Assembly (NCBI GenBank): GCA_026391695.1
Contig: JAPLDP010000016.1
Span: 1-46,232 of the forward strand
Source of the DNA: Bacteroidota bacterium
Lineage (GTDB): Bacteria > Bacteroidota > Bacteroidia > Bacteroidales > JAGONC01
Direction of reading: 5' to 3'
Length of the DNA stretch: 46,232 nucleotides
Below, in pieces: positions 1,434 through 46,232 of this stretch (positions within the stretch are counted from its first letter, which is position 1; each line of letters starts with the position of its first letter). The notes under the pieces were generated by a model that saw only the letters and a program-made list of their open reading frames with translations, did not search any database and had not been told where the DNA came from. The translations under genes and the position numbers were made by a program.

Positions 1434-2306
1434 ATGAATGGGGGTGATAATTGGTATACTCAACAAGTTTTTGAATATAATTTAAGTATTATTCGATCAC
1501 TTTATTTTATCAATGATAGTATTGGCTATGGGGGCGGGGCATATTATGATATTGAAAATGATGATATTTATAGTTGTATTGTAAAAACCTTGGACAAAGG
1601 AGAAACATGGGAAATCATTTATCTGACTCAAAATACATCTTATTCAATTCGTGATTTATTTTTTACTGACACAATAAACGGCTGGGCTGTAGGAACTAAG
1701 CCATACCAACAATATTTTCTCATGCATACAGACAATGGTGGCGAAACCTGGGAAGAACAAACAATAGCATGTACGCCAGAACCAAATGGCTTAGATTGTG
1801 TGTATTTTGTCAATGATACAACGGGGTGGATAGGTGGAGCGGGATCAGGTTTTGGAGTTATATATTTCACTCACAATGGTGGCGAAGACTGGCAACTGCA
1901 ACAGGAGTTATACAGTCAAATAGGTGACATCCAAATGCTCAACTGTGATACCGGCTGGGCTGTGGGTGCCGATTATATCTACCACACAACCAATGGCGAT
2001 ACAATACTTATTAATGGTGTGAATGAAAACAAACCTAAAAAAGACTTCTTCGCTATCTACCCAAATCCCACAAATGGTATTTTCATGATAAAAACCGCCT
2101 ACAAATCACCAATGGTAATATGCTGGGTATTAATCACAAACCTATATGGTGATCCTGTCTTTCAACTAAACAATGTAACAATTGAACAATCGAACAGTCA
2201 GTTCATCGACCTGTCATATCACCCTGCAGGTATTTATTTTATCACAATCAAATATACTGCAGACAATCAAATTAATACGTTCACAAAAAAAATCATGAAG
2301 CTATGA
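1434..2306 (+). pseudogene. C-terminal fragment of the broken YCF48-type T9SS protein
   Basis: The open frame extends back to 1392, and the residues before the first ATG (FQIVHT) align with FQLIHT of the upstream paralogue, so the ATG at 1434 is not a natural start. It carries several YCF48-type repeats (MNGGDNWY, HTDNGGETW, HNGGEDWQ) and a complete T9SS sorting domain (IYPNPTNGIF ... GIYFITIK ... KKIMKL). With the 1171-1398 fragment it makes one gene lacking about 57 codons. If expressed alone it would have no signal peptide and would not reach the periplasm. It overlaps the start of the large protease gene by ATGA at 2303. Confidence 0.75.
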
Positions 2307-5300: not shown

Positions 5301-8300
5301 CAGGTAAAAATGATATAACACTTTATTGGATAGGGGTTAATGGTACTAAAGGCTATAATATATACCGAAGTGAAACGGAAACAGGCATTTACGAAAGAAT
5401 AAATAATTTCCTCGTCACAGGTACATCGATGTATTACGATTCAGAACTTGAAGCATCAACGGAGTATTATTACAAAATAAGTGCAGTTTCAACTACAGGT
5501 AATGAATTAAACATTGGTAATTTAATAGCAAATCATGCATGGACATCTCTGGATTCACATGGTCAATTTCCAATAGCGGTGAGTGATGGTGTTGCTAATA
5601 GTAACTGGACATCCATAACAGTTGCTGACGTTGATGAAAACGGAACAAATGAATTATTCCCTGCTTTCACTAGAAATAGAGATGGTCTGATAATGGGCTT
5701 TAATGAAACAGGACAGGAACTATACGATATTGATGGAGATGAAGCAACTGTTTCAGGATTTGCTGAAATTGTTTTACCTCAAAATAGCAGCGGAAAAACT
5801 GAGGGTGGGGAGTTACATTCTGAAGCTGCCGTTGGAGACGTTGATAATGATAATCATGCAGAAGTGTTCGTTACAACCCACGGAAGCTATTACGCACCTG
5901 AAAGGGGATATTTATTTGGATTTAAGACCGTTGATGAGGAAGAACCGTTAAATCAACCAGATCCTTTGTGGAATGATATACCGATCGACTTGGGATATCA
6001 TTCTTCTTCAAGTCCTGTTTTAGCCAACTTGGACGGGAATGAGAATGGATTTATGGATATAATAACTAATAATGGATTTAAAGATATAATAACTGAGCAG
6101 AAATATCAAAAGAACAGAGTGTTCTCTCATGATGGTTCTTTGAAATGGGAGAGACAATTTGTGGACGACCTCTCATCTTCTTGCGGTTATTTAGCCGTTG
6201 CAGATCTGGATAATAATGGATATCAAGAAATAATAAATGGATCACATACACCAGGGGAAATATATATTTACAATCATGACGGATCAGATTATAATATAAA
6301 TCCTGTTCTTATAAATTCAGTCCTACCTTTCAATTCAAATCCAGTTATTGCTAATATCGATTCTGATGTCGAACTTGAGATAATAATTGTAGGAATAAGC
6401 AATGGTTATGGAAAACTTTACGCTATTAATACTGATGGTAGTTTTGTTGAAGGCAAATGGGATGGCCAAATTAACCTGAATTGTAGTACGGGTTTAGCAC
6501 CACAAGCTGCTATTGGTAATTTGAACAATGATGAAAGCCTGGAAATCGCAATTGCCGATGATGAAAAATTATATGTTTTTGATAATCTTGGAAATACTAT
6601 TTCTGGATTTCCGGTTGAAATTGCCGACTTGGAGTGCGGCAATCGTTCACCACTACTTGCAGATGTTGATTCAGACAATGATATAGAAATTATCGTTACA
6701 GCATCAAACGACAGAATATATGCTTTCAATCCTGATGGCACAGAGTGTATTTACTGGAGATTAGCTTCTAAGTCTACTAATGGTTTTTATGCGACACCTA
6801 CAATATCAGATATAAATAATGATGGTTTAAGCGAAATAATTGCCAGCGATGTATTTGGGAAAACATTTGTTTGGAAAACAACCGGTGATGCACATAAAAT
6901 AGAATGGGGACAATACAGGCATGATTCATACAACAGTGGAACGTATAGTAATTTTTGCTATTATGATGCCGAAAATCCCGAAATTATTACCAGTAATGAG
7001 GAATGGACGGAAAATTATGATATGCGGAGGGATATCATCATAGAATCTTCAGGTACTCTTACTATTCATAGCCATGTTACAATGCCTGAGGACGCTAAAA
7101 TTACTGTTCAATGTGGTGGTAAATTAATCATTGATGGGGGTTTGCTGACCTCTGCTTGCCAGGGCCCCTGGCAAGGTATAGAAATTGAAGGTAATCCAAA
7201 CCATGAGCAAATACCCACTTCTTACCAGGGCATGATCGTCATTATGAATGAAGGCACCATTGAAAATGCTAAATGTGCAGTAAAAGCCATCGACGGCGGT
7301 ATTGTTGTCGCTGTCTCGGCCAACTTCATCAATAACCATACTGCTGTGGAATTTTTACCTTACGGATACGAAAATATCAGCCTCTTTACCTTTTGCACCT
7401 TTGAAACCAACAAGGATCATTTGGAAGATTGTGATCCTGAACATTTTGTCGATATGACTGAGGTTCATAGCATTCAGTTTAATGGCTGTACATTTAAAAA
7501 CATCTGTCCGTTGAGCGATCCCGAGCTGACTCAGAGAGGAACAGGTATATATAGCACTAATTCAAGTTTTTACCTTGACCATGAATGTAAATATTACGTC
7601 AGGCCCTGCGAAGATTACCAGTATAACCTGTTCCAGTGGCTGAGTTATGGGATTTATGCAACCGATATAGGTTTCGACAATTCCATGAAAGTCAGCCATA
7701 CTAATTTCATCAATAATATGAAGGGGCTTTACCTGAGCGGATACAGCAACGGCATCGAGGTCACCTCAAATGAATTTGATGTATACGATTCTGCTTTAGA
7801 CCCCGATGGCTATGGTATGTATTTAGATCACTGTACAGGATACCATGTCGAAGACAACAGGTTTCATAACGGATCTCTCGTTGAGAACATTGTTGGCTTA
7901 TACATCAATAACTCAGGTACCGAGGACAATATGATCTATAACAACAGTTTCAACACGCTTGATTATGCCATTATCGCTCATAATATCAACCGTGATGACA
8001 GAGAACAAAGCGGGCTTTGTATAAAATGCAATGATTTCACTGCCAATACCAATGATATTTCGGTTACGGTCTACAATCCCTCTGTAACGCCCGATTATGG
8101 CATTGCCGAATTTCAGGGATCGATGGCTCCCTCCAACACCGCTCCTGCCGGCAATACCTTCACCGTAAGTGGTTCACATGAGTATGATATCTATAATGAA
8201 GGGAATAACATCGTGTATATTCATCATCGGGCGTCTTCAACACCATTAAAAATCATCCCGGATATGATATCTTCAAATATCACATTAGTAGAAAATATCG

Positions 8301-9511
8301 TAGCATATTACAATAAAAATTTAAGCTGCCCGTCAATGCTGAATTATGGAGAAGGCAGCAAAGAAAATCTTAAATCATTGATGGCCGAAGCCAGTACAAA
8401 CATTCTGACAACACAGGCTGAATTGGCTGAGGTTGTTGATGGGGGTAATACGGAAGAGATGAATACGGATGTCATTATGAGCATTCCTGACGAAGCGCTC
8501 GAAATTCGTCAGCAATTACTTGATGAATCGCCATACTTGTCCGATACGGTGATGAAATCAGCCATATACAAGGAAGAGGTCTTGCCCAATGCCATGGTTC
8601 GTGATGTTTTGGTAGCAAATCCGCAGTCAGCCAAGTCGGATGATGTTCTGGAAGCTTTGGATAACCGCTGGGATCCCATGCCGGATTATATGATGGCCGA
8701 AATCATGGAAGGTAAAGACTCCCTCGGCGCCAAAGAAGTTCTTGACTCCAGGTTGACTTTTCATAAACAGGAACGGTCAAATGCATTTCATACACTAATC
8801 AGGAATTATAAAAACGATACGATCAACTCCTGGTGTACCGACAGCCTGATCAGTCTTCTGCAAAATGAAGAAGCCATACAGGAAAAGTATCGCCTGGCTT
8901 TTCTGTACCTGCAACTCCACGATAGCCTCCAGGCCGAGGCCACCCTGGATGATATCCCGGATTCCTATGAGTTAACAGATGAACAACTGGCAATACATGG
9001 TTATTATCTAGAGTTGTTCGATTTACTCAGGGAACTGGAGATAGACAGCTTATCCATACTCAAGCCTGACAGTATCCAGATCAGCACATTGCAGACGTTG
9101 GCATTGAACGATGCTTATCTGCCCGGTGTTTTTGCCCGCAATATCCTGTTAGTCAACGGATTAATTGAGTATCAGGAACCTGTCGTACTGCCCGACCCGC
9201 TTAAATCGGCCGAGGTCAGGAAAGATTACGGTAAAATGAATGTAAATCCGGTAACCGGAGCATCCAGACTATTGATTTATCCTAATCCGTCAAATCAGTA
9301 TATCATTGTTGAATTTCACCTGGATAATGATGGTATGGAAAGCTACATCGATATCCTGGATGCTTCTTCCATAAAAGTGGGTGAAATGCAATTACATGGC
9401 AGCCAAAACCAGGTGGTAGTGCCCGTAAACAATCTGAAGCCGGGACTTTATCTGGTAAGGCTTATGGTTGACCAACGGGTAATAGAAAGCAAGAAGGTGG
9501 CGGTGCTATAA
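2303..9511 (+). CDS. Gingipain-like (C25) giant secreted protease with FG-GAP, beta-helix and T9SS modules
   Basis: This 2402-residue multidomain cargo protein has a signal peptide at 1-21 (ends IMAQQ), a C25 propeptide-like region at about 25-200 and a peptidase C25 domain at about 245-690. The catalytic dyad is inferred as H542 (in HIDHSG, aligning with GHGS of gingipains) and C581 (in LSAGCQVC), followed by the typical GGVAFLGPS strand. Next come Ig/CARDB-like domains (about 690-980), a fibronectin III-like domain (990-1085), FG-GAP/VCBS repeats with Asp-rich loops such as DVDENGTNE and DVDNDNHAE (1100-1550), a right-handed beta-helix (1556-1990), an alpha-helical region (2010-2300) and a T9SS sorting domain (2320-2402, IYPNPSNQY). 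The start overlaps the previous stop (ATGA). Likely an extracellular or surface protease; the peptidase fold is fairly sure, the substrate unknown. The beta-helix and helical parts recur in the C1A protease at 42486-46040. Confidence 0.88.
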   Translation: MKKLISFLGLFIFINSVIMAQQIIQQFTFPQNDVQLTQNGVYDVVKLPDAYYLQEEEHAGKPQLPVKQFKLLLPQGALTTNVNLTINSEQQLSGSFYLYPVQLPVYANFSSPPAFVEPDTIIYNSNDPFPTDYIYKYEMSGFRDYNYVTVSFIPFRYIPLSRQLHLLTSITITVTYTVNAIGETHKLRPYGSTDHEAYEFIKSIVINPTQIEAFYPDAANKIAQYLGTREIAESYGGYEPTELPALESNPVDYIIITNNTDVYGNNIGDFTNKFQQLADWKILSGSSAKVITVDAIRQSYPGVDIAEQIRQFIKDAHRLWGTEYVLIGGNASIVPVRWIGHFLVPKEKPTDLYYSAILHPDLLYNDNWNRDGDIIFGNGSGPDADYCDFYPDIAVGRAPVDTDDELNLFLQKHFTYYRCSFAPEVPGIPQDVAWLAKQLNFSGIIDSNYNWDSDPSILGLYRTWQITEQFSFGEDHHQYTMHEYLPNWNSTHHDWCPAYYNPVIEPDGCSESYIIIYDENVGHTEVKYQLNQRYGIVNHIDHSGRFGLGLCGITTQCGLNSSDFWDLFPTNKYSVFLSAGCQVCPIDLNFYIGEQWLSSPNGGVAFLGPSADILTQNGNDYDYQFFKLLYNTSTNIVGKLNNYAPSFVFGGEPYLHKIMQLLGDPELSIYTDEPVEMSVTHDNTVPIGTSTFSVTVSDVPPGEFATICLYKENEVYVSTLTGGVSTMQITPDNIGIMKLTVTCHNREPYESTISVIQNSGAHLYISNITITDENENGFIEPGEQIELSIKLNNSGAIEASDIRGTLMPLDPNITMDQDFSYYPDLGPGEEGISNNTYIFKAPLDLSYGNAISFELQISTPAQGSFIERFFFNIKTSQLEIGDRTVNGGDPYQFVSGYVGHLYVDIYNYGTVTASDLTAVLTTELPEYVEIQTGTSVYGDIESFKKGTNSPEFKFLIREHYSGQALIFELTLTDGFGKTDVFELNLTENPPESISGFDFSPGKNDITLYWIGVNGTKGYNIYRSETETGIYERINNFLVTGTSMYYDSELEASTEYYYKISAVSTTGNELNIGNLIANHAWTSLDSHGQFPIAVSDGVANSNWTSITVADVDENGTNELFPAFTRNRDGLIMGFNETGQELYDIDGDEATVSGFAEIVLPQNSSGKTEGGELHSEAAVGDVDNDNHAEVFVTTHGSYYAPERGYLFGFKTVDEEEPLNQPDPLWNDIPIDLGYHSSSSPVLANLDGNENGFMDIITNNGFKDIITEQKYQKNRVFSHDGSLKWERQFVDDLSSSCGYLAVADLDNNGYQEIINGSHTPGEIYIYNHDGSDYNINPVLINSVLPFNSNPVIANIDSDVELEIIIVGISNGYGKLYAINTDGSFVEGKWDGQINLNCSTGLAPQAAIGNLNNDESLEIAIADDEKLYVFDNLGNTISGFPVEIADLECGNRSPLLADVDSDNDIEIIVTASNDRIYAFNPDGTECIYWRLASKSTNGFYATPTISDINNDGLSEIIASDVFGKTFVWKTTGDAHKIEWGQYRHDSYNSGTYSNFCYYDAENPEIITSNEEWTENYDMRRDIIIESSGTLTIHSHVTMPEDAKITVQCGGKLIIDGGLLTSACQGPWQGIEIEGNPNHEQIPTSYQGMIVIMNEGTIENAKCAVKAIDGGIVVAVSANFINNHTAVEFLPYGYENISLFTFCTFETNKDHLEDCDPEHFVDMTEVHSIQFNGCTFKNICPLSDPELTQRGTGIYSTNSSFYLDHECKYYVRPCEDYQYNLFQWLSYGIYATDIGFDNSMKVSHTNFINNMKGLYLSGYSNGIEVTSNEFDVYDSALDPDGYGMYLDHCTGYHVEDNRFHNGSLVENIVGLYINNSGTEDNMIYNNSFNTLDYAIIAHNINRDDREQSGLCIKCNDFTANTNDISVTVYNPSVTPDYGIAEFQGSMAPSNTAPAGNTFTVSGSHEYDIYNEGNNIVYIHHRASSTPLKIIPDMISSNITLVENIVAYYNKNLSCPSMLNYGEGSKENLKSLMAEASTNILTTQAELAEVVDGGNTEEMNTDVIMSIPDEALEIRQQLLDESPYLSDTVMKSAIYKEEVLPNAMVRDVLVANPQSAKSDDVLEALDNRWDPMPDYMMAEIMEGKDSLGAKEVLDSRLTFHKQERSNAFHTLIRNYKNDTINSWCTDSLISLLQNEEAIQEKYRLAFLYLQLHDSLQAEATLDDIPDSYELTDEQLAIHGYYLELFDLLRELEIDSLSILKPDSIQISTLQTLALNDAYLPGVFARNILLVNGLIEYQEPVVLPDPLKSAEVRKDYGKMNVNPVTGASRLLIYPNPSNQYIIVEFHLDNDGMESYIDILDASSIKVGEMQLHGSQNQVVVPVNNLKPGLYLVRLMVDQRVIESKKVAVL

Positions 9512-35423: not shown

Positions 35424-35454
35424 AGATATCTTTCATTACTCAAAACTGTTTAAT

Positions 35455-35535
35455 AGAACACGGAGGATACGGAAGGCACGGAGGCTCACGGAATGTCCGT
35501 GATATTCCGCGTTTTCTGTGTATTCCGTGTTCCAA
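35455..35535. repeat. Inverted repeat with GAACACGGA ... TCCGTGTTC ends
   Basis: The left arm GAACACGGAGGATACGGA pairs imperfectly with the right arm TCTGTGTATTCCGTGTTCC across a central GAATGTCCGTGATATTCC. A further ACACGGATGACACGGA unit lies at about 35555-35572. Confidence 0.7.
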
Positions 35536-35590
35536 TAGTGACAAACCAAATGTCGAACACGGATGACACGGAAATGAACGAAGGTATTAT

Positions 35591-35742
35591 GAATTACCCC
35601 GCGATTTAGCGCGGGGTTAAACCAAACAACACAAAAACCGGGCTTTAGCCCTAAACTTTAAAAAACAACGCATTTGTTTTGGGCTAAAGCCCTGAATATT
35701 TTTTACTGCCGGGAATCCCCGGCCTGAAGTCCGGGGTAATTC
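35591..35742. repeat. Multi-hairpin palindromic element (GAATTACCCC ends)
   Basis: The ends GAATTACCCC and GGGGTAATTC are perfect inverted repeats enclosing at least three smaller hairpins: ACCCCGCG/CGCGGGGT, GGGCTTTAGCCC with GGGCTAAAGCCC, and CCCCGG/CCGGGG. The 398-bp gap 35424-35821 shows no ORF of note. It sits between the hdr-like cluster and the convergent T9SS cargo genes, so it may act as a bidirectional terminator. Confidence 0.75.
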
Positions 35743-35821
35743 AAATTACGAATTCCGCATTTAGGTCCGTATTATTGTAAAGATCCAAAAATTTAAATCA
35801 CTGCTTCCTTGGACTATTCCC

Positions 35822-37357
35822 TCATTGGCCAATTAATAGTTTCTCCTTCGCCAAGATTTGGTGTGAATTCTGCAGCACAGCCAAGTACAAACCCGCCGGA
35901 TAATCCGTAACATCGGTTTGGATTTTCTTTGTATATGCCGGTATCTCAATTTCATCCACCAGCCTGCAATAACTGTCATAAATGCTCAATATGGCACCGG
36001 TTTTCAAATCTTTGAATTCAAAATTGACGGTTGAGACAGTAGGATTGGGATACACTTTTAGTACCTTGTTATAATCTTCTTTCAGCGGTATATCTTTGAT
36101 TGAAACATACAGGCCGCAGGTTAAATCGACCGTATCGGAAGTGATTGTATCAGGGCATAGGCTGTCGTAATTAAAAGTCTGAGTGTAAAGGGTATCATCC
36201 TCTAAATCCGAATTGAGTTTCCAGAGGTAAATGTGTATTGGACTAAAAGTGCCTGTAACAAGAATCTTGTTATCAAATGTGGTTTTAATACTTACAGGGC
36301 CTATACCTATATCATCCTCTATCAATAATCTATTTTTAATTATATTTCCGGTTGTATCTGTAATAAGCGCATTGATATAACCTATATCAATCGGCCATTC
36401 GTCATTAGTCCACGCTATGCCAACGATCAATTCTGAATCATTATACACTTCAATTGAAGAAGCTCCACCTGAAACAATCGTATCACCTAGCAAATAATAT
36501 TGCCCTAAATATTCACCGCTTTCATTCAATTTAAAAATGGAAGGATGAAGACAGGTTTGATTTCCATATGTACATGCACTATAAAATATACCGGTATCTT
36601 TTTCAACTGTTTGTGAAAGCCAACCTGTATAGTTACCACATACCAAATCCCAGATTTGCTGCCCGGAGGTGTCGGTCATAAACCAGAAAGGACGAAAACC
36701 AGGATATGTACACCGGCCTGAGACCAAATTGTGGCCCTGATAAGTCAAAAGCAAATGACTTCCTTCCTCATTGGACATCTCAGGGTACTCCCAGGCATAG
36801 TTCTTTATCCAAATTGGATATCCCAGCGTATCTATCTTCACCAGGCTTATTCGCTGATTATGAGAGTATCCGGCATAATATGCCATCATACCTAAATAAT
36901 TTCCACCATCCAGTTGTATGATGCCTGTTCCATAATCATGTTCTGATGCCTGAAGTTCAAGACACCATTCAATCTCTCCACATGTATTTAATTTTAAGAA
37001 CAAGGGATCAAAGTGCCCCGTCAGATCATTTTTACTAGTCGATGCAGCTATCACACTCCCTCTGTCTTTCGTCTTTTGTAAATCATAAAAAAAAGTTTGA
37101 TATGATATATCTCCGAATTTTTTATTCCAGATAATGTTTCCATTGATATCTGTTTTAATCAACCACCCCCATCGACTTACAACCGTACCTTGGCTGAGAT
37201 AACCCGCTATCAAATATCCATTATCATAATCATTTTCAATACCCCGAACATAAGATGAAGTATTACCTCCATAAATTTTCGGCCATTCCTGCCCCCGGGC
37301 ATTAATCAAATTTATTATTAATAACTGTATTAATAAAATTCTTAAAATAGTATACAT
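35822..37357 (-). CDS. T9SS cargo protein with propeller-like repeats, paralogue A
   Basis: About 511 residues. Start at 37357 (MYTILRILLIQ, by alignment with the two paralogues; the frame opens at 37372). The signal peptide ends NARGQEW, then EWPKIYGGNTSSYVRG opens a region of repeated beta-strand units (GWLIKTDINGNIIW, FLKLNTCGEIEW, LVKIDTLGYPIW, LFKLNESG) like delta-60/SBBP-type propellers. A T9SS sorting domain follows (VYPNPTVSTVNF ... GLYLAVLQ ... KEKLLIG). No catalytic motif. It lies 24 bp downstream of a truncated protease-tail gene, as does paralogue B. Confidence 0.8.
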   Translation of the reverse strand: MYTILRILLIQLLIINLINARGQEWPKIYGGNTSSYVRGIENDYDNGYLIAGYLSQGTVVSRWGWLIKTDINGNIIWNKKFGDISYQTFFYDLQKTKDRGSVIAASTSKNDLTGHFDPLFLKLNTCGEIEWCLELQASEHDYGTGIIQLDGGNYLGMMAYYAGYSHNQRISLVKIDTLGYPIWIKNYAWEYPEMSNEEGSHLLLTYQGHNLVSGRCTYPGFRPFWFMTDTSGQQIWDLVCGNYTGWLSQTVEKDTGIFYSACTYGNQTCLHPSIFKLNESGEYLGQYYLLGDTIVSGGASSIEVYNDSELIVGIAWTNDEWPIDIGYINALITDTTGNIIKNRLLIEDDIGIGPVSIKTTFDNKILVTGTFSPIHIYLWKLNSDLEDDTLYTQTFNYDSLCPDTITSDTVDLTCGLYVSIKDIPLKEDYNKVLKVYPNPTVSTVNFEFKDLKTGAILSIYDSYCRLVDEIEIPAYTKKIQTDVTDYPAGLYLAVLQNSHQILAKEKLLIGQ

Positions 37358-37380
37358 CGTTTCTTTCCTCATCTACAAAT

Positions 37381-38207
37381 TTATTTATTCCCGGCTTTAG
37401 CAATTTTTTCACTTTCAATCAGGTTATCACCTACAAATAAACTTATCATATAAACTCCATTAGGAAAATTTTTTAATGAAACAGTTAATTGATTTAAATA
37501 ATTCGAAAGTATCATGGTTTTGATCAACTTGCCATTGACATCATATATAAGCAATTTACCATTAATTTCATATTCAGATGTATTATAATAAACAATCACA
37601 TAATCCCAGGCAGGATTAGGAAACAATTTCAAGTGATCCTCTTTTTCAACAATTACTTCGTGAGGTGTGAAATGATACTCAGGGTAAGATTTTGTATTTA
37701 AAGGAAAATAAACTTGTTCAGTATAATCAATGAAATTGCCTTTCACAAGCAATCCCCGCGCATAACCGCCGATCAACGGATACCCATTGTTCATAATTTC
37801 ATGCAAAGTATTAACAGATATAGAATCCAATTGCTCTACGCTCCATGCACTGTCACGCATCGTTTTTAAAATGCTGAAATAATTTTCATAATCCTGATGT
37901 ACCGCATTTTGGTATGTACTGAGTTCGTAAGTCGAAGGAATTTCATCCAGCAAGTCCAACGCTTCTTCCGGCTGATCATTGTTAAAATAGCAGAAAGCTA
38001 ACCTGTATTTTGACGGAAGGTCCGTTTCATTTTCATGTAAGGCTATCAGGCTGTCATACGGATTAAGGATGTTGGTATCGGAAAGGAATTTCCGTACGAG
38101 TTGATTTTTGGCTCTTGTGCGCAACTGCTGCCAGTATCCCAGCCGTGATTCAAGTATTTCTTTTGCCCCAAGATAGTTGCGTCCCTGCATGATCTCAGTC
38201 ATTATGT
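37381..38207 (-). pseudogene. Truncated C-terminal piece of a C1A-type protease gene, copy A
   Basis: From an ATG at 38202 (MTEIMQGRNYLGAKEI) the product aligns closely with the last ~275 residues of the protease at 42486-46040, covering the helical region and the entire T9SS sorting domain (LFPNPAWDYV ... GVYMISLF ... KIAKAGNK). Upstream of 38208 homology stops and the 195-bp hairpin element begins; the frame stays open through it to 38331 but that part is not homologous. There is no signal peptide or catalytic domain, so it is a gene remnant or silent cassette. Confidence 0.75.
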
Positions 38208-38402
38208 ACTTTTCTTTTGCTTGTCCAAAAGAAAAGTACGGAAAGAAAAGGACAGTCTGGGTTTTCGGCGACCCACTATGGGCTCGATTCCTAAGCCAGC
38301 CGAGCCGCTCTCCCGCCTTTGGCGGGATCACTTCTCCGTCTGGCTTTTAACGGAATCTTCGCCCAGTGGGTACCCCGCCTCCAAACCCAAAGGCATTAAA
38401 AA
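38208..38402. repeat. ~195-bp hairpin-rich element, copy A
   Basis: About 95% identical to 40667-40861. It starts with a perfect 12-bp hairpin (ACTTTTCTTTTG-CTTGTC-CAAAAGAAAAGT), then has CCCGCC-TTT-GGCGGG, and longer arms ACCCACTATGGGC against GCCCAGTGGGT. It caps the truncated end of the protease-tail fragment. No protein is convincingly encoded. 38403-38498 shows nothing else. Confidence 0.85.
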
Positions 38403-38498
38403 TGAATTTCAATTTAATTCCGATTTTAATATTAAAATAAATCACATGATCTATTGTGATGCTCCTGTAATATCAATTGTAGTGAGCATAAAAATCAC

Positions 38499-40028
38499 TT
38501 ATCTCACCACCATAAATCTTTCCTTACCAAGGATAGTTTTGGAATTTTTCAATACGGCCAGATACAATCCTGGCTTAAAGCCCATAACATCGACTTGTGT
38601 TTCCTTTGTATATGCCGGCACAGCTCTTTCCTCCGCCAGCTTGCCATAGCTGTCGTATATGCTCAAAATGGCGCCGTTTTTCAAATCCTTAAACTCAAAA
38701 TTAATAATGGATGCAACAGGATTAGGATAAATCTTCAATACTTTATCATACTCCTCTTTTAGAGGTATTTCATCTATCGAAACATATACGCCACAGGATA
38801 AATCGGTGGTATCGGAAGAAATCGGATACGGACAAAGGCTGTCGTAAGTGAAGGGCTGGGTGTAAAGAGTATCATCCTCCAAATCAGAATTGAGTTTCCA
38901 GAGGTAAATATGAACAGGATTGAACGTACCCGTAACAAGAATTTTATCATCAAATGTTTTCTTAATACATTTCGGACCTTGTGGATCATCAATTAATAAT
39001 CGTATCTTAGATATATTTCCGGCTGTATCCGTAATTAGCACATTGCTATAACCCTCGTCAACCGGATATTCTACATTTGTCCAGGCAATACCAACAATTA
39101 AACTTGAATCATTTAACACTTCTATTGAGGAAGCACCACCTGCAACTATGGTATCGCCAAGCAGATAATATTGCGATAAAAATTGTCCGCTTTCATTCAA
39201 TTTAAAAATTGAAGGATGAAAGCAGGTTTGATTCCCATATGTACCAGCACTGTAAAAAATACCTGTATCCTTTTCAACTGTTTGTGGAAGCCAACCTGTA
39301 TAATTACCCCATATTAAATCCCAAGTTTGCTGACCGGAAGTGTCGGTCATAAACCAGAAGGGACGAAAACCAGGGTATGTACAGCGGCCTGAAACCAAAT
39401 TGTGACCCTGATGAGTCACAAGCAAATGACTTCCTTCTTCATTTGACATCTGAGGGTAATCCCAAGAATAATTCTTTATCCAAATCGGATTTCCCAATGT
39501 ATCTATCTTTACCAGGCTTATACGCTGATTATGAGAGTATCCGGCATAATATGCCATCATACCTAAATAATTACCATCAACCAATTGTACCATACCTGTC
39601 CCATAATCATCATCTGATGCCTGAAGTTCAAGACACCAATCAATCTCTCCGCATGGATTCAGTTTAATGAATAAAGGATTAAAGTGTCCATTCAGATCAT
39701 TTTTACTGGTTGATGCGGCTAATACAGTCCCATGGTCTTTAGTTTTTTGTGAAGCGTAAAAAAAAGTTTGATACAACAGGTCACCAAATTTCTTCTCCCA
39801 AATAATATTTCCGTTTATATCGGTCTTTATAAGCCATCCCCACTGATTAACCACCTGTCCCCTGCTTAGATAACCTGCTATCAGATATCCATTATCATAA
39901 TCATTTTCAATGCCCCGAACATACGACGAAGTATTCCCACCATAAATTTTTGGCCATTCTTGCCCATGGGTAAAAGTTAAAACTGTTGATAATAATCCTG
40001 TTAGTAAGATTTTCAACAAAGTGTTCAT
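38499..40028 (-). CDS. T9SS cargo protein with propeller-like repeats, paralogue B
   Basis: About 509 residues. ATG 40028 is preceded by a strong AGGGAGG site (40034-40040, minus strand, 5-nt spacing), which decides the start over the open frame at 40085. Signal peptide ending LTFTHGQEW, the EWPKIYGGNTSSYVRG opening, the same repeated units as paralogue A, and a C-terminal T9SS domain (IYPNPVASIINF ... GLYLAVLK ... KERFMVV). High similarity to paralogue A suggests a recent duplication. Exported scaffold of unknown role. Confidence 0.82.
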   Translation of the reverse strand: MNTLLKILLTGLLSTVLTFTHGQEWPKIYGGNTSSYVRGIENDYDNGYLIAGYLSRGQVVNQWGWLIKTDINGNIIWEKKFGDLLYQTFFYASQKTKDHGTVLAASTSKNDLNGHFNPLFIKLNPCGEIDWCLELQASDDDYGTGMVQLVDGNYLGMMAYYAGYSHNQRISLVKIDTLGNPIWIKNYSWDYPQMSNEEGSHLLVTHQGHNLVSGRCTYPGFRPFWFMTDTSGQQTWDLIWGNYTGWLPQTVEKDTGIFYSAGTYGNQTCFHPSIFKLNESGQFLSQYYLLGDTIVAGGASSIEVLNDSSLIVGIAWTNVEYPVDEGYSNVLITDTAGNISKIRLLIDDPQGPKCIKKTFDDKILVTGTFNPVHIYLWKLNSDLEDDTLYTQPFTYDSLCPYPISSDTTDLSCGVYVSIDEIPLKEEYDKVLKIYPNPVASIINFEFKDLKNGAILSIYDSYGKLAEERAVPAYTKETQVDVMGFKPGLYLAVLKNSKTILGKERFMVVR

Positions 40029-40050
40029 CAGTTCCTCCCTTTCTATAGGT

Positions 40051-40666
40051 TTACTTATTTCCTGCTTTAGTAATTTTTTCATCATAGATTATCATTTTAC
40101 CGATCATTTTATACACGGTGGTGTTATAATAAGCTATCACATAATCCCAGGAAGGATTTGGAAAGATTTTCAAATGATCTTCCTTTACATCAGTTACTTC
40201 GTTTGGTGTGAAATGATATTCAGGATACGATTTTATATCAAGTGGAAAATATACTTTTTCAGTGTAATTGATAAAATGACCTTTCATCAATAATCCCCGT
40301 GCATAACCTCCGATTAAAGGATACCCATTGTTCATTATTTCATGCAAAGTATTAACAGATGTAGAATCCAATTGCCCTACGCTCCAAGCACTGTCACGTA
40401 TCGTTTTTAAAATGCTAAAATAATTTTCATAATCCTGGTGTACAGCAGTTTGATATGAATTCATCTCGTAAGTTGAAGGAATTTCATCAATCAAATTCAA
40501 CGCTTCTTCTGCCTGATCATTATTTAAATAGCAGAAAGCCAGTCTGTATTTTGACGGAAGATCCGTTTCATTTTCATACAAAGCTATCAGGCTGTCGTAA
40601 GGATTAAGTATGGTGGTATCGGAAAGGAATTTTCGTATCAGTTGATTTTTAGCTCTTGCACGTATC
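40051..40666 (-). pseudogene. Truncated protease-tail fragment, copy B, with internal deletion
   Basis: Reads ARAKNQLIRKFLSDTTILNP onwards, matching the C1A protease tail, but begins about 20 residues later than copy A and again starts right at the edge of a 195-bp element (40667). The sorting domain is damaged: after GKMIIYDE it jumps in frame to KITKAGNK, losing about 42 residues including the GVYMISLF strand. It cannot be a functional T9SS protein. It ends 22 bp before the ATG of paralogue B. Confidence 0.8.
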
Positions 40667-40861
40667 ACTTTTCTTTTGCTTGTCCAAAAGAAAAGTATGA
40701 AAAGAAAAGGACAGCCTGGGTTTTCGGCGACCCACTATGGGCTCGATTCCTAAGCCAACCGAGCCGCTCTCCCGTCTTTGGCGGGATCACTTCTCCGTCT
40801 GAATTTTAACGGAATCTTCACCCAGTGGGTACCCCGCCTCCAAACCCAAAGGCATCAAAAA
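40667..40861. repeat. ~195-bp hairpin-rich element, copy B
   Basis: Near-identical to 38208-38402, with the same 12-bp hairpin at the edge joined to the protease-tail fragment. Scattered substitutions (for example GCCAGCC to GCCAACC) show they are not a single collapsed copy. Confidence 0.85.
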
Positions 40862-40920
40862 ATAGTAGATCCATATCCAACTTCACCAAATCGAACGCCG
40901 AACATCATTAAATCGCCTAA

Positions 40921-42480
40921 TCATCTCCCTCTCACCACCATAAACCTTTCTTTCCCAAGGATATTTTTAGAATTTTTCAACACGGCCAGATACAATCCTG
41001 GTTTATAATTCGTGACACCAACCTGCATCTCCTTTGTATGTGCCAGCACAACCATTTCCTCCACCAGCCTGCCATAACTGTCATATATGCTCAATATGGC
41101 ACTGGTTTTCAAATCTTTAATTTCAAAATTGATTGTTGTGAAAGCCGGATTGGGAAATACTTTCAGCACTTTATCATATTCTTCTTTCAGTGGTATATCA
41201 TCAATTGAAACATATACGCCACAGTTTAAGTCAATGGTATCAGAAGGAATTGGGTTTGGACAAAGACTGTCGTAAGTAAAGGGCTGGGTGTAAAGGGTAT
41301 CATCCTCTAAATCCGAATTGAGTTTCCAGAGATAAATGTCCCAGTTATTGTCGACCACATAGCTTCCGGTGACTAATATTTTATCATCGAATGTTTTGAT
41401 GATATTTTCCGGCGTCCTGTTTTCATGAAGTAATTGTCTTCTTTTAACCAGATTTCCTAATGTATCGATCATGAATACTTCACTATATCCATCATCAACA
41501 GAAGATTCATTAACTCGCCATTGAATTCCTACAAGCAATGTTGAATCATTAAAAGAATAAAGTGGTTCAGCCCCACCGGCAACAATTGTATCTCCTAATA
41601 GAAATTCCCTATATAAAGCATTCCCGTCGATATCGAATTTAAACAGGGTAGGTGTCATAGGACCATTGTACATTCCACCTGATGCATAGAAAATACCATT
41701 ATTCACTGCGATGGTCTGACCATCGAGACCTGTTCCGCTTGGCCATTTTAAATCCCATATCTGATTGCCAGATGTATCGGTTTTAATCCAGAACGGGCGG
41801 GCGTTAGGGCAAAAGCAATGTCCTGAAACCAAATAGCTATCATCAGAGGTATGAATCAGGTAATAACCTTCTTCATCATGAATGGTTGGATCATCCTGTG
41901 CCAAGTTCTTGATCCAGACCGGTACGCCCAATGAATCCATTTTTACCAGGCTTATCCGGATATTCTGGTAATCACCACCATAATATTTCAGTAATCCGAT
42001 ATAATGGTTGTCATCAAGTTGAAGAATGTCCATGCCATAATTTCCACCAAGTGAACTAAGTATGGTACACCATTCAATCTCTCCACAAGTATTTAACTTA
42101 AGAAATAAAGGATCAAAATAAAGGGGATCATCGTATTTACTTGTTGCTCCGGCTAATATAATACCCTGATCTTTTGTCTTTGATAAAGCAATAAAAGCTG
42201 TATTGTAAGAAAGATTGCCAAATTTTTTATCCCAAATGACATTTCCATTAATGTCCGTTTTTATTAACCATCCCCATTTTGAGGGATTTTGGCCATAACC
42301 GGCATAACCTGAGATCATGTATCCAGCATCATAATCTTCTTTAATAGATGTTACAGTTGCATCAAAATTATCACCATATATTCTCGGCCATTCCTGCCCA
42401 TTAATGCAGGTAAAAATTAAAAACATTGACTGTATTAAGATGATTCTTAATAAAATACCTGATAATATTTTCATAATCAT
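40921..42480 (-). CDS. T9SS cargo protein with propeller-like repeats, paralogue C
   Basis: 519 residues, signal peptide ending FTCINGQEW, then EWPRIYGDNFDATVTS and repeated GWLIKTDINGNVIW-type units as in paralogues A and B, and a T9SS domain (VFPNPAFTTINF ... GLYLAVLK ... KERFMVVRGR). More diverged in the middle than A and B are from each other (for example KDIGVP against TLGNPIW regions). It lies 5 bp downstream of the intact C1A protease gene, in the same relation that A and B have to the truncated pieces, so this is likely the parental arrangement. Confidence 0.82.
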   Translation of the reverse strand: MIMKILSGILLRIILIQSMFLIFTCINGQEWPRIYGDNFDATVTSIKEDYDAGYMISGYAGYGQNPSKWGWLIKTDINGNVIWDKKFGNLSYNTAFIALSKTKDQGIILAGATSKYDDPLYFDPLFLKLNTCGEIEWCTILSSLGGNYGMDILQLDDNHYIGLLKYYGGDYQNIRISLVKMDSLGVPVWIKNLAQDDPTIHDEEGYYLIHTSDDSYLVSGHCFCPNARPFWIKTDTSGNQIWDLKWPSGTGLDGQTIAVNNGIFYASGGMYNGPMTPTLFKFDIDGNALYREFLLGDTIVAGGAEPLYSFNDSTLLVGIQWRVNESSVDDGYSEVFMIDTLGNLVKRRQLLHENRTPENIIKTFDDKILVTGSYVVDNNWDIYLWKLNSDLEDDTLYTQPFTYDSLCPNPIPSDTIDLNCGVYVSIDDIPLKEEYDKVLKVFPNPAFTTINFEIKDLKTSAILSIYDSYGRLVEEMVVLAHTKEMQVGVTNYKPGLYLAVLKNSKNILGKERFMVVRGR

Positions 42481-42485
42481 AGATC

Positions 42486-45400
42486 TTACTTGTTTCCAAC
42501 TTTAGTAATTTTTTTACTCTCAATCAAGTTATCATCCACAAACAAGCTGATCATATAAACCCCATTTGGAAGATTTTTAAATGATATAGTTGATTGATTT
42601 AACTGATTAGATAATACAATGGTTTTTATTATCTTACCATTAACATCATACATTATCAATTTACCATTCATTTCATACTCAGAAGTGTTATAATAAACAA
42701 TCACATAATCCCATGCAGGATTAGGAAACAATTTCAGATGATCTTCCTTTTCAACAATTACTTCGTGAGGTGTGAAATGATATTCAGGGTAAGATTTTAT
42801 ATTCGTGGGAAAATAAACCTGTTCAGTATAATCAATGAAATTGCCTTTCACAAGCAATCCCCGTGCATAACCGCTGATCAATGGATACCCATTGTTCATA
42901 ATTTCATGCAAAGTATTAACTGATAATGAATCTATTTGCCCAGCGCTCCAGGTGCTGTCATGCATCGTCTTTAAGACACTGAAATAATTCTTATAATCCT
43001 GATGTACCGCATTTTGGTATGTACTGAGTTCGTAAGTCGAAGGAATTTCATCAAGCAAATTCAACGCTTCTTCCGGCTGATGATTGTTAAAATAACAGAA
43101 GGCCAGCCTGTATTTCGATGGAATGTCAGTTTCATTTTCATACAGGGCTATCAGGCTGTCATAAGGATTAAGTATGGTGGTATCGGAAAGGAATTTCCGG
43201 ATGAGCTGGTTTTTGGCTTTGGCACGTATCTGTTGCCAGTATCCCAGTTTGGATTCAAGTATCTCTTTTGCGCCAAGGTATTCACGACCCTGCATGATCT
43301 CTTCTATCATGTAATCTGGCAAAGGATCAAAACGATCATTAAGTGATTGAAGAACATCCTGCGATTTAGCGGACTGAGGATTAGCAGTTAACACATCCCG
43401 TAACATGGCGCTTGGCAGGACATCTTCCTTATAAATAGCCTGTTTCATTACAGTATCGGACAGGTAAGGCGATTCATCCAATAACTGCTGCCGCATTTCC
43501 AAAGCTTCATTAGGCATACTTGTCATCACTTCAAAATTCAACTCATCGGTATTACCTCCGTCCACCAACAAATCTAACAAATTCCGATATTGATTGATAT
43601 ATCCCTCCGCAAATGTCATCTCAAGCCGGGGATCGTAACCGCTTTTGTAATTGTTGTTCCCTAAATTTGAAGGGCATGCTGAAAGTGAATCATAGACTAA
43701 TAATTGTTGTTCATATCGTGTTATTTTCTCATAGGTGTAATTACTATCTAACGGGTACGTCAGTGGATCTTCTTGTTTTTGATGATGAATGTAAGTAAAA
43801 GGCAGTGCATCGTTGAAATAGTTGAAATACAATTTGTCACGGCCGCCATAGTCGTGAGCAGGTAGAGTGTCATAAGTAAACGTATTTCCTGCCGGAGCCG
43901 TTACTATTAAGTCATAAGAGCCCTGCGACACTTTAATCCCATGTTCAGGGGTGCCGTTTTCCCGTCCTGACTTCCACACAAGGAAATCATTCAGGTTGGT
44001 GTTCATATCGTTGCACTTATTGCATAAGCCGGTGCCGGGGCCCCTATTTTTTCCTTCAGCAACTATTCCCCCGTGTAAATGAGAAAAATAATTGTTGTAT
44101 ATCTCATTATCCTCAGTGCCGGAATTCTTTATATATATACCCATTGTCCAATAGAAAGATGCGGAACCAGGGACATAATTTCCCGTAAACAGGTTACCTT
44201 CAACATGATATCCCGAACAATCTTCCATATAAATACCACCCACAAATGGATCATCCTGAAAGTTAGTCATATGAGCTGCTATTGTCATAAATGTATCGGA
44301 AATGATGGTCGGCTGTTGGTATCCTGAAAGATAAATCCCTGCGTTATTATTATTGAAAATGGCCTTATCCACATAAAACCTTCGATTATCACCACCATTA
44401 AACGCTTTTATGCCATACCAGAGATTATCAAAGGAACAGGGAATCAGCTCATAGCAACCCTCGCCGCAAGGCTCATACATCGGATCGGGATATTCATATC
44501 CAGGCAGCACCCAAACATCAGCATCATTAGCATAGATACCAATATTATCTTCAGTTAATGCCATTAAATTTGCATCCAATTCAGTATGGTTATATTTAAA
44601 GGAACAACCGTAGAATTCAACTCCTTTTACACCTTCCAATGAAACCTGGACTCCCGGTAAACCATATTCAAGGAAAGCGATATAATCTGTTTCAAACATA
44701 CATTTTGTAAAATAGCTGAAATTGTTTTCCTCATGTTCCGGGATGAACGGATGTATATTTTGGTAAGGATGAAATTCAATGCTTGTATTATTGTTTAAAA
44801 AAAGCGCCTCCCTTGCTATTATAAGACCCCCTTCAAAACCTTGTATATAATTTCCAATTACCTTTTTGCCTGTCACTATTCCTGTTATTGCATTTTGAAT
44901 TGATCCGTTATTACTTATAAGAACCCTCCCTTGCGATTCCTCATAAAATTGTGATTCCTCCGGATTACCCCAGACTTCGATACCCTGCCAGTTTTCCGTA
45001 CACGCTTTTGTCAGAGTGCCACCGTCAATTTCCAGGGTCGCTCCGGGAAGGACGATTAGTTTTGTTTCGGGTGCAAACAGAACCGTATCCGTTATCGTTA
45101 GTGTAACAGACGAATCAATGACTATATCACGGTTAATGCTAATGTTTTCTGACCATGTCGTATTGGATGAGATGTGTTCAGGAGTAGGAATATAATCCAA
45201 TAGGCACTCACAATAAAAAGTTTCAGTATCATAAGGACCTAACATTGGATTTGAATCATCGCAATCTTCCTCATCCTTTTCACCCGGACAATCGAATGGT
45301 TTTTCACCTATTCCCCAATAATAATAACCATCCTCATCATAATCATGCCATTGGCGGGCAGGAGGGATACTACAAATAACCGTAATAGCCCCAGAAATAT

Positions 45401-46040
45401 ATGTTTTTGGAGGTTTTAATGCTATTTTGGCATATTCAAAACCGTTTTCTCCGTAGTTTGGTCCTTTACTGTTTTTAAATATCCAGATAATACTTAAATC
45501 AACCGGATCAACTATATAACCTGTAAGTACTACGTTATGATTACTTCCTTTTTGTGGCGTAAAAGTCACAGATAGAGGCCCGTTGGTGATCAGCTTCTTC
45601 ATAATTTCAGTACTTTCAGATGGTTGAATAAAATGATAGTTATCAATTTTAACAACGGTATCAGCATTACACTGATTATTCAAGCTGATACATGTAGCTT
45701 GATCGCCGGTAGCATAATAAGGAAAACAATTTTCTGTCTTCACTCCGGGATCGTGTAAATATAGAAAAACGAAAGGAGGCGATCCGCCATCACAACCATT
45801 ACTTTCTTGGGAAAAACATACAATTTCCTGTTCCGAAAGATTGAAATCGAGATGTTGATTAAAATAAAGGTTAATATAACCTTCGAGTGCACCTATTGGA
45901 CCAAAAGCATAACAAGATCCACACATACCCTGGTCTTTCGCTTTTGTCATCCAGCCTGTTCCTGTAATATCATTATCATAATATTTGGAACCTAACCGGT
46001 TTGCCCCATGCCGGTTGCGCCAATCAAAATTCTTGACCAT
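42486..46040 (-). CDS. Papain-like (C1A) protease with beta-helix and T9SS modules, N-terminus truncated
   Basis: The 1184-residue product starts inside what should be the mature peptidase; there is no signal peptide, and an in-frame stop lies upstream near 46101. Peptidase C1A features: oxyanion Q37, catalytic C43 (GMCGSCYAF), GCDGGSP (83-88), H168 (NHNVVLTGY) and N190 (FKNSKG). The Trp residues flanking the Cys and the Asn in papain are Y44 and K192 here. About 225-280 is an Asp-rich metal-binding-type segment (DEDGYY ... DCDDSNP). A right-handed beta-helix (about 285-770), a helical region (780-1090) and a T9SS sorting domain (1100-1184) follow, all matching the C25 protease at 2303-9511 in order. 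Peptidase activity is plausible; export is doubtful without a signal peptide. Confidence 0.82.
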   Translation of the reverse strand: MVKNFDWRNRHGANRLGSKYYDNDITGTGWMTKAKDQGMCGSCYAFGPIGALEGYINLYFNQHLDFNLSEQEIVCFSQESNGCDGGSPPFVFLYLHDPGVKTENCFPYYATGDQATCISLNNQCNADTVVKIDNYHFIQPSESTEIMKKLITNGPLSVTFTPQKGSNHNVVLTGYIVDPVDLSIIWIFKNSKGPNYGENGFEYAKIALKPPKTYISGAITVICSIPPARQWHDYDEDGYYYWGIGEKPFDCPGEKDEEDCDDSNPMLGPYDTETFYCECLLDYIPTPEHISSNTTWSENISINRDIVIDSSVTLTITDTVLFAPETKLIVLPGATLEIDGGTLTKACTENWQGIEVWGNPEESQFYEESQGRVLISNNGSIQNAITGIVTGKKVIGNYIQGFEGGLIIAREALFLNNNTSIEFHPYQNIHPFIPEHEENNFSYFTKCMFETDYIAFLEYGLPGVQVSLEGVKGVEFYGCSFKYNHTELDANLMALTEDNIGIYANDADVWVLPGYEYPDPMYEPCGEGCYELIPCSFDNLWYGIKAFNGGDNRRFYVDKAIFNNNNAGIYLSGYQQPTIISDTFMTIAAHMTNFQDDPFVGGIYMEDCSGYHVEGNLFTGNYVPGSASFYWTMGIYIKNSGTEDNEIYNNYFSHLHGGIVAEGKNRGPGTGLCNKCNDMNTNLNDFLVWKSGRENGTPEHGIKVSQGSYDLIVTAPAGNTFTYDTLPAHDYGGRDKLYFNYFNDALPFTYIHHQKQEDPLTYPLDSNYTYEKITRYEQQLLVYDSLSACPSNLGNNNYKSGYDPRLEMTFAEGYINQYRNLLDLLVDGGNTDELNFEVMTSMPNEALEMRQQLLDESPYLSDTVMKQAIYKEDVLPSAMLRDVLTANPQSAKSQDVLQSLNDRFDPLPDYMIEEIMQGREYLGAKEILESKLGYWQQIRAKAKNQLIRKFLSDTTILNPYDSLIALYENETDIPSKYRLAFCYFNNHQPEEALNLLDEIPSTYELSTYQNAVHQDYKNYFSVLKTMHDSTWSAGQIDSLSVNTLHEIMNNGYPLISGYARGLLVKGNFIDYTEQVYFPTNIKSYPEYHFTPHEVIVEKEDHLKLFPNPAWDYVIVYYNTSEYEMNGKLIMYDVNGKIIKTIVLSNQLNQSTISFKNLPNGVYMISLFVDDNLIESKKITKVGNK

Positions 46041-46084
46041 ATTAGTAAGACAATAATCCTTTTCCGCGGGCCAGGGGAAACTAA

Positions 46085-46232
46085 AGATACCTTTTCACTA
46101 CTGACCGACTAAATTAATACAAAAGAGGGTACTCCCAACGGGTTTCCCCTCAATGTTGTAGTTTTGTTTTGCGAACCAAAAACTGCAACATGGGTAAAGA
46201 TACAGAAATAAAATTAGTCGGACAGCCGATTT
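46085..46232 (+). mobile_element. 5' end of a probable IS4/DUF4372-type insertion sequence
   Basis: From about 46085 the sequence no longer fits the protease reading frame; a non-coding leader of about 100 bp leads into a transposase-like start at 46190. The exact left end and any target duplication cannot be placed, because the other end lies outside the window. The position suggests that it removed the 5' end of the protease gene. Confidence 0.45.
46190..46232 (+). CDS. Transposase N-terminus (partial, IS4/DUF4372-like)
   Basis: Only 14 codons are visible (MGKDTEIKLVGQPI). The MGK... GQPI opening is typical of Bacteroidota IS4-group transposases with an N-terminal DUF4372 domain, as far as I recall; no catalytic residue lies within the window. 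The gene continues beyond the right edge. Alternative: an unrelated gene. Confidence 0.45.
   Translation, partial: MGKDTEIKLVGQPI

What the first reader, a model, noticed from the sequence alone, without database searches (positions are those of the whole stretch)
35822..42486. Triplicated protease-tail/propeller cassette with two progressively eroded copies
On the minus strand the order is intact protease then propeller C; 195-bp element, tail fragment B, propeller B; 195-bp element, tail fragment A, propeller A. The A and B fragments are cut at different points of the same gene but always at the edge of the element, and the unit length between elements is ~2.46 kb. This looks like tandem amplification in which the element marks the breakpoints, leaving propeller genes alive while the protease tail decays; the tails could also be a reservoir for recombination.
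Basis: partly seen in the sequence, partly recalled or inferred. Interest (0 to 1): 0.75.

Follow-up and report, generated by a model that had tools for sequence, protein, structure and literature searches.

The report
Shuffled protease-tail and propeller gene array
A bacterium carries one large secreted-protease gene followed by repeated pairs of a protease tail piece and a propeller-protein gene, and the same layout in related bacteria suggests these pairs are swapped and copied between loci rather than simply decaying.

Summary
The array is real: protease and propeller 1, then two units of a 195-bp element, a 5'-truncated protease tail and a propeller. (1) The protease is not intact: a multicopy insertion sequence cuts it; its signal/propeptide region lies on another contig beside a 10-bp target duplication. 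(2) The tails are not decaying neutrally: dN/dS is 0.13 between the two fragments, and 0.19 and 0.33 for fragments sharing a 5' boundary in different MAGs. (3) The element is a dispersed repeat, 95% identical between units whose tails differ at dS 0.72; 6 of 13 propeller-to-tail junctions leave no room for it.

The layout recurs: nine arrays in seven genomes; 25 of 95 propellers follow a tail piece. Tails cluster by locus, propellers do not. Conversion tracts cross the tails; propeller 3' ends are homogenised in several genomes. Best reading: orphan-module arrays, organised like CDI/Rhs orphans, of Type IX-secreted protease-propeller pairs whose propellers are exchanged between constant flanks. 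Function is untested.

The parts
46092..46232 (+). End of a multicopy insertion sequence that splits the protease gene; the held contig stops inside it
   Evidence: 137-141 bp at 99-100% identity on five other contigs, C4, C41, C91, C52 and C26; at the contig end in C4, C41, C91 and C52, not checked for C26; 10-bp direct repeat AAAAGGTATC on both sides, read by eye across contigs C22 and C16
42486..46091 (-). Unit 1 chassis gene: papain-family (C1) protease domain, beta-helix, helical tail and T9SS sorting domain; 5' part missing because of the insertion sequence
   Evidence: Pfam Peptidase_C1 1e-29, Beta_helix 6e-06, Por_Secre_tail 1.2e-09; AlphaFold2 model of body plus tail, pLDDT 84
42489..43538 (-). 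Tail of the unit 1 gene (residues 835-1184): helical region plus sorting domain, the portion found as fragments elsewhere
   Evidence: tblastn map, tail HMM
40921..42480 (-).
   Evidence: AlphaFold2 pLDDT 91.9; profile match to CylK 1e-17; Por_Secre_tail 2.2e-08
40862..40920 (-). Spacer between P1 and the first element, 59 bp, no match but itself in the own-genome loci tested
   Evidence: blastn
40667..40861 (-). 195-bp element, copy 1
   Evidence: last nucleotides missing at the junction with the tail fragment
40051..40668 (-).
   Evidence: no Por_Secre_tail match
38499..40085 (-).
38403..38498 (-). Spacer between P2 and the second element, 96 bp
38208..38402 (-). 195-bp element, copy 2: long imperfect hairpin plus a 14-bp terminal hairpin
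   Evidence: folded as single-stranded DNA, z-score -7.6
37381..38207 (-).
35822..37372 (-).
6929..9505 (+). Same beta-helix plus tail chassis at the end of a C25 (gingipain-type) protease gene 2303-9511

Best explanation
An orphan-module array of a Type IX-secreted protease and propeller system. The basic pair is a large chassis gene (exchangeable N-terminal protease, beta-helix, helical tail, sorting domain) followed by a propeller gene. Downstream lie orphan modules, each a 3' piece of the chassis gene plus another propeller. The modules arise or are replaced by recombination within two constant stretches, the tail upstream and the propeller 3' end downstream, so propeller bodies are swapped between loci while the flanks stay alike by gene conversion. 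Shown: the architecture, its recurrence, the tree discordance, conversion-like tracts in the tails of this genome, homogenised propeller 3' ends in several genomes, and low dN/dS of the tail pieces. Inferred: that the pieces are displaced ends of earlier pairs or exchange homology, and that a varied set of propellers is what selection keeps. The 195-bp element and the insertion sequence most likely came later.
For: Same layout in nine arrays from seven genomes: three in this genome (C16; C52/C66; C12) and one each in JAUVKF, JAUXFX, PLMO, JAIPBS, JAUXWT and SACF. Of 95 distinct propeller genes, 44 follow a chassis gene and 25 a tail piece; of the 25, 3 are open at a contig edge, 3 match the sorting domain only and 1 follows a frame break, leaving 18 clear ones. 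In this genome 5 of 5 fragments found by protease search precede a propeller (three weak sorting-domain-only hits not counted). Propeller bodies reject the three array propellers as one clade (p-AU 2.9e-75): P2 and P3 group with the C52/C66 first propeller. Tails group by locus (support 87/98) and reject (tail 2, tail 3, C52) at p-AU 0.008. Tail tracts at p=0.0005 in 4 of 10 pairs. Propeller 3' region: 53 of 127 within-genome pairs exceed +2 sd against 70 of 2288 between-genome pairs. In JAGOPY, 13 of 15 pairs among six loci have body pS 0.74-0.84 but 3' pS 0.16-0.48.
Against: Tails are not homogenised within JAGOPY, where tail identity is only slightly above that of the body (which crashed after printing this). 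20 of 95 propellers have no chassis piece upstream, 3 of these with a weak sorting-domain match there, so the tail is not required. No strain pair showing an actual swap was available. P2 and P3 are sisters, so some units may have arisen by local duplication, and their 3' ends are more diverged than their bodies, against the general pattern. Four of 10 tail pairs show no tract (p 0.21-0.73). The paired tail fragments of L162 share one junction, as tandem duplication would give. The loci were fetched by propeller, so they cannot show tail fragments without propellers. Function was not tested.
Confidence: 0.55

Rival explanations
1. Plain tandem duplication. A segment with one end inside the chassis gene and the other after the propeller is copied in place. 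Propellers then diverge quickly, and later gene conversion keeps the tails and propeller ends alike. Tail pieces are by-products.
For: P2 and P3 are sister propellers at 77.6% aa. The two L162 fragments share one junction. Truncation points are scattered along the tail, as random breakpoints would be.
Against: P1 of this array is less like P2 and P3 (58.9% and 54.8% aa) than is the first propeller of another locus (72.7% and 71.6%). Fragments stay open with dN/dS 0.09-0.43 in the 14 of 17 pairs that could be estimated; pairs under 42% identity were dropped, and two pairs rest on L131 and L112, which are cut by a contig edge.
Confidence: 0.27
2. Tail fragments are maintained small genes. Truncated tails (helical region plus sorting domain) are expressed and do a job with the propeller, so selection keeps them. 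This could hold together with the best explanation, so the odds overlap.
For: Fragments sharing the same 5' boundary in different MAGs evolve at dN/dS 0.33 [0.19-0.53] (L149/L150, upstream DNA 86% alike over 207 bp) and 0.19 [0.10-0.37] (L202/L205, 96% over 158 bp, 59 of them inside the frame). Two pieces, L144 and L141, keep a signal-peptide-like start, by eye.
Against: Starts vary from tail position 2 to 268. No signal sequence was seen on the window's two fragments (by eye, no predictor). One window fragment has lost much of its sorting domain. Conversion from full-length genes could imitate constraint. A third pair, L128/L154, is inconclusive, 0.41 [0.14-2.18].
Confidence: 0.3
3. One reading: the 195-bp element mediated tandem amplification and the tails are decaying.
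For: Both window fragments meet an element. The element folds strongly (z -7.6), which could stall replication.
Against: The two elements are 95% identical while the tails beside them differ at dS 0.72, though conversion of the element could also do this. No element match at 35424-35821 after the last propeller. Junctions with no room for it at C66, L133, L162 (two), L164 and L203. dN/dS 0.13 between the two fragments.
Confidence: 0.05

Closest known systems
Orphan cdiA-CT/cdiI and rhs modules downstream of CDI and Rhs loci (PMC3150448; passages read, part of the abstract among them)
   Same: A full-length gene followed by arrays of its 3' fragments, each with a downstream partner gene; fragments keep varying lengths of the parent; fragments mostly lack start signals there; mobile elements interrupt some loci; modules are exchanged.
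   Different: There the 3' end is the polymorphic toxin. Here the 3' end is the conserved tail and sorting domain, and the varied part is the partner gene. No toxin or immunity activity is known here, and the secretion signal is T9SS.
Allelic exchange and domain rearrangement of gingipain/HagA surface proteins in Porphyromonas gingivalis (PMC5266723; passages read)
   Same: T9SS-exported proteases and adhesins diversified by recombination between repeated modules, with a conserved C-terminal domain.
   Different: There adhesin domains are rearranged inside the genes. Here separate downstream propeller genes vary and truncated chassis ends remain between them.
CylK-type beta-propeller (PDB 7ron, 7fh6 and others)
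   Same: Closest solved match of the propeller by profile and by fold.
   Different: 14-15% sequence identity in the structural alignment; CylK is an alkylating enzyme, and no active-site comparison was made.
Small dispersed intergenic repeats of bacteria (REP/MITE-like; search listing only)
   Same: The 195-bp element is multicopy and hairpin-rich; none of the eight other copies checked overlaps an ORF of 120 aa or more.
   Different: No target duplication or named family was established and no transposase was sought; no Rfam match above gathering in the array region.

Membership tests
CDI/Rhs orphan toxin-immunity modules | Main gene followed by 3' fragments of it, each with a partner gene | tested here: met
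CDI/Rhs orphan toxin-immunity modules | Polymorphic C-terminal toxin demarcated by a conserved motif | tested here: not met
   3' end is the tail plus Por_Secre_tail sorting domain; no toxin family listed from Pfam or NCBIfam at E <= 0.1
CDI/Rhs orphan toxin-immunity modules | Partner gene neutralises the cognate toxin | not testable with these tools
   needs expression tests
T9SS type A cargo | C-terminal Por_Secre_tail / TIGR04183 domain above cut-off | tested here: met
   protease, three propellers and the unit 3 tail above cut-off; unit 2 tail has no match
Peptidase family C1 | Papain-family domain above cut-off | tested here: met
   PF00112 1e-29, 104.6 bits, cut-off 20.7; activity not tested
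Beta-propeller | Propeller fold | tested here: met
   AlphaFold2 pLDDT 91.9; Foldseek to CylK 1.5e-14; DUF5122 only below cut-off
Mobile REP/MITE-like element (the 195-bp repeat) | Several dispersed copies with a defined structure | tested here: met
   25 matches in the own genome, eight of them covering 170-301 of the 301 query bases at 84% identity or more, the array copies included; fold z -7.6
Mobile REP/MITE-like element (the 195-bp repeat) | Target-site duplication or cognate transposase | tested here: inconclusive
   several copies sit in longer, mosaic repeats with no common edge; no transposase sought
Decaying pseudogene (tail fragments) | dN/dS near 1, stops or frameshifts | tested here: not met
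   dN/dS 0.12-0.13 for the two window fragments, no stops inside; one has an in-frame deletion of about 43 residues

The most novel reading that the evidence does not exclude
A genome-wide cassette system in which T9SS-secreted proteases share one chassis, and beta-propeller partners are shuffled between two recombination anchors, the chassis tail and the propeller 3' end. Orphan tail-plus-propeller modules act as donor stock and are kept open by selection or conversion: the layout of CDI orphans, but with the partner gene as the variable part.
Probability: 0.4. Interest if true: 0.75.

Novelty: new variant of a known kind. Interest (0 to 1): 0.55.

Why it matters
If right, some uncultured Bacteroidota carry a recombination-driven diversification system for secreted protease-propeller pairs built like CDI/Rhs orphan arrays but with the variability moved to the partner gene. 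It would account for short protease-tail genes with a sorting domain in these genomes, and it makes testable whether the propeller is an inhibitor, an adhesin or a targeting partner for its protease.

Tried and rejected
Element as driver of amplification: rejected on age, on its absence after the last propeller and on junctions that leave no room for it. An integron-like cassette array was considered while reading the element and not pursued: no integrase was sought, and attC features were compared from memory only. RNA element: one match at E <= 1 in 35000-46232, a plant miRNA family far below its gathering score and outside the elements. Literature: searches on T9SS with gene conversion (5 papers, two looked into), with concerted evolution (1 paper, listing only), with beta-propeller and tandem duplication (10 of 17 listed), and on paralogous gene fragments (0 papers) showed no paper recognisable from title or start of abstract as describing these arrays; the library lacks most subscription journals. 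Passages of PMC5808330 did not bear on the question. One search (an element word with Bacteroidetes) gave one paper that I did not read.

General tail homogenisation as the mark of the system: tested and not general, since JAGOPY tails are not homogenised; the propeller 3' end is homogenised in several genomes. Correlations of module identities showed no module pair standing out (r 0.42-0.67), so a linked exchange unit of tail sorting domain plus propeller body is not shown.

Full report
NAMES. Units run with the minus strand. Unit 1 is the protease with propeller P1 (40921-42480), unit 2 is element, tail fragment (40051-40668) and P2 (38499-40085), unit 3 is element, tail fragment (37381-38207) and P3 (35822-37372).

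THE OBSERVATION. ORFs, repeats and homology confirm the array and its coordinates. The elements lie 2459 bp apart and are 95% identical. The fragments begin at protease residues 937 and 892. Unit 1 and unit 2 tails share 82.4% of nucleotides, unit 1 and unit 3 tails 85.8%, and the three propellers 63-79%, so the copies are distinct enough that assembly collapse is not a concern.

THE PROTEASE IS SPLIT. The last 141 bases of the held contig, from 46092, match five other contigs at 99-100% over 137-141 bp; in four (C4, C41, C91, C52) this is at the contig end, in C26 I did not check. The plus strand there begins a frame MGKDTEIKLVGQPIF that looks like a transposase start (by eye, no database match made). 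A search with the N-terminal region of the C52 protease found the missing piece at C22:157-675, 73% identical, beside the start of that contig. The first 160 bases of C22 match the starts of C27 and C36 and a stretch of C17. The 10 bases AAAAGGTATC stand on both sides. This is read across two contigs and not from one continuous sequence. The C52 protease also looks damaged: a signal-peptide-like stretch lies in another frame than the body, which could be a sequencing error.

WHAT THE PROTEINS ARE. The protease has a papain-family domain and a T9SS sorting domain. The region after the protease domain is modelled as a beta-helix (about 1-500 of the model), a helical stretch (about 520-782) and a beta-stranded sorting domain (819-900), mean pLDDT 84; Foldseek gave no match at E <= 0.001, the best being beta-helix proteins. 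The same chassis carries other proteases: a C25 gingipain-type protease in this window (2303-9511) and part of an S8 subtilase on C62. The propellers model with pLDDT 91.9 and match CylK by profile (1e-17) and by fold (1.5e-14); DUF5122 is matched only below its cut-off.

RECURRENCE. In this genome the pattern is found three times: C16; C52 plus C66 (full gene, propeller, tail fragment, propeller; the contig ends share 43 bp exactly); and C12 (two tail fragments between three propellers, the first cut by the contig edge and the second by a frame change). A propeller search of named genomes kept the best 80 of 262 confirmed loci. Home-made profiles gave the maps. In total I see nine arrays with a tail fragment between propellers, in seven genomes. 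One search lists 31 tail ORFs without body. All 31 precede a propeller, but the loci were chosen by propeller. Of the 31, three are open at a contig edge (L131, L185, L112), five match the sorting domain only (L128, L141, L154, L166, L190), so their descent from a chassis gene is unsure, and L199 follows a frame break in a full gene. L144 and L141 keep a signal-peptide-like start by eye, as internal deletions would. With stricter demands on the propeller, 95 distinct propellers remain: 44 follow a chassis gene, 25 a tail piece, 4 another propeller, 20 none of these and 2 a contig edge. Of the 25, 18 are clear internal truncations; of the 44, 10 begin inside the body, 5 of these at a contig edge. 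Three of the 20 have a weak sorting-domain match upstream. Thirteen tail ORFs follow a propeller; in 6 of the 13 the tail homology starts within 18 bp of the propeller stop codon.

NOT NEUTRAL DECAY. Between the two window fragments dS is 0.72 and dN/dS 0.13 [0.08-0.21]; against the unit 1 gene it is 0.13 and 0.12; all ten pairs among five tails of this genome give 0.09-0.16, and the C12 pair 0.28. Expected stops under neutrality, taking half the divergence as the fragment's own, are 2.7 (unit 3), 2.4 (unit 2) and 3.7 (C66); none is seen (P 0.065, 0.091, 0.024), so stop counts alone are weak for the window. In other genomes 17 pairs at 42% identity or more were listed, lower ones dropped; 14 could be estimated, at 0.09-0.43; the interval of one (L128/L154) includes 1, and two rest on pieces cut by a contig edge (L131, L112). 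Fragments with a shared 5' boundary in different MAGs are the best test, as they should have diverged while truncated: L149/L150 0.33 [0.19-0.53] and L202/L205 0.19 [0.10-0.37]; L128/L154 is inconclusive. Conversion from full genes could still imitate this.

RECOMBINATION. Sliding identity shows conserved tail, variable propeller body and conserved propeller end. The trees disagree: propeller bodies reject the C16 trio (p-AU 2.9e-75) and place P2 and P3 with the first propeller of C52/C66; tails group by locus (support 87/98, not starred) and reject the propeller grouping (p-AU 0.008). The test groups were chosen after seeing pairwise identities. Permutation tests (2000 shuffles, not corrected for the number of pairs) on five tails find conversion-like tracts at p=0.0005 in 4 of 10 pairs, at p=0.007 and 0.009 in two more, and none in four (p 0.21-0.73). 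Without the unit 2 tail, 3 of 6 pairs reach 0.0005, and at third codon positions alone these three keep p 0.0005-0.001. Among 70 propellers passing the filters in loci that I had labelled by genome, 53 of 127 within-genome pairs have a 3' end more alike than predicted from the body by over 2 sd, against 70 of 2288 between genomes. Synonymous sites agree: in JAGOPY, 13 of 15 pairs among six loci on six contigs have body pS 0.74-0.84 and 3' pS 0.16-0.48; a seventh locus (L136) does not share this. The window propellers show the effect weakly (P1-P2 body 0.67, 3' 0.54) and P2-P3 show the reverse (0.49 and 0.68).

THE ELEMENT. It has 25 matches in this genome, array copies and partial ones included (a few of these are the tail part of the query). 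It is part of longer mosaic repeats in several places, folds strongly as DNA (z -7.6), and outside this genome only short matches turn up, in 6 of 59 others. None of the eight other copies checked overlaps an ORF of 120 aa or more. Its two array copies look much younger than the units, so it most likely entered or was converted later. The unit 3 junction lies in a 5-bp stretch shared by element and gene, as in illegitimate joining.

MECHANISM. Most likely, recombination in the conserved tail brings in or duplicates a tail-plus-propeller segment, leaving the earlier 3' end and its propeller as an orphan module, and later conversion keeps the flanks alike. CDI orphan arrays are built the same way (PMC3150448, passages read), except that there the 3' end is the variable toxin. 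P. gingivalis also reshuffles T9SS protease and adhesin modules (PMC5266723, passages read). What the propeller does for its protease is unknown; inhibitor, adhesin and targeting partner are all open.

Noticed in passing
window 2303-9511 (+): A 2402-aa C25 (gingipain-type) protease with FG-GAP repeats ends in the same beta-helix/tail/sorting-domain chassis as the C1 protease; its 740-aa downstream neighbour gave no propeller-profile match.
   Followed up: partly
L190, L200, L193, L174, L178: Propeller genes interrupted by one to three in-frame stop codons (TGA or TAG) with homology on both sides.
   Followed up: no
L149:5848-6252, L150:1867-2328: A tail fragment with its own conserved upstream region and a start MKNSILMLIAAGE that looks, by eye, like a short signal peptide made from a former helix.
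   Followed up: partly
window 35483-35745: Other palindromic intergenic repeats (by eye) downstream of the last propeller; a similar palindrome lies next to a tail fragment on C12.
   Followed up: no
L105 (C52), upstream of the protease frame: Signal-peptide-like start in another frame than the protease body: apparent frameshift in the second C1 protease.
   Followed up: partly
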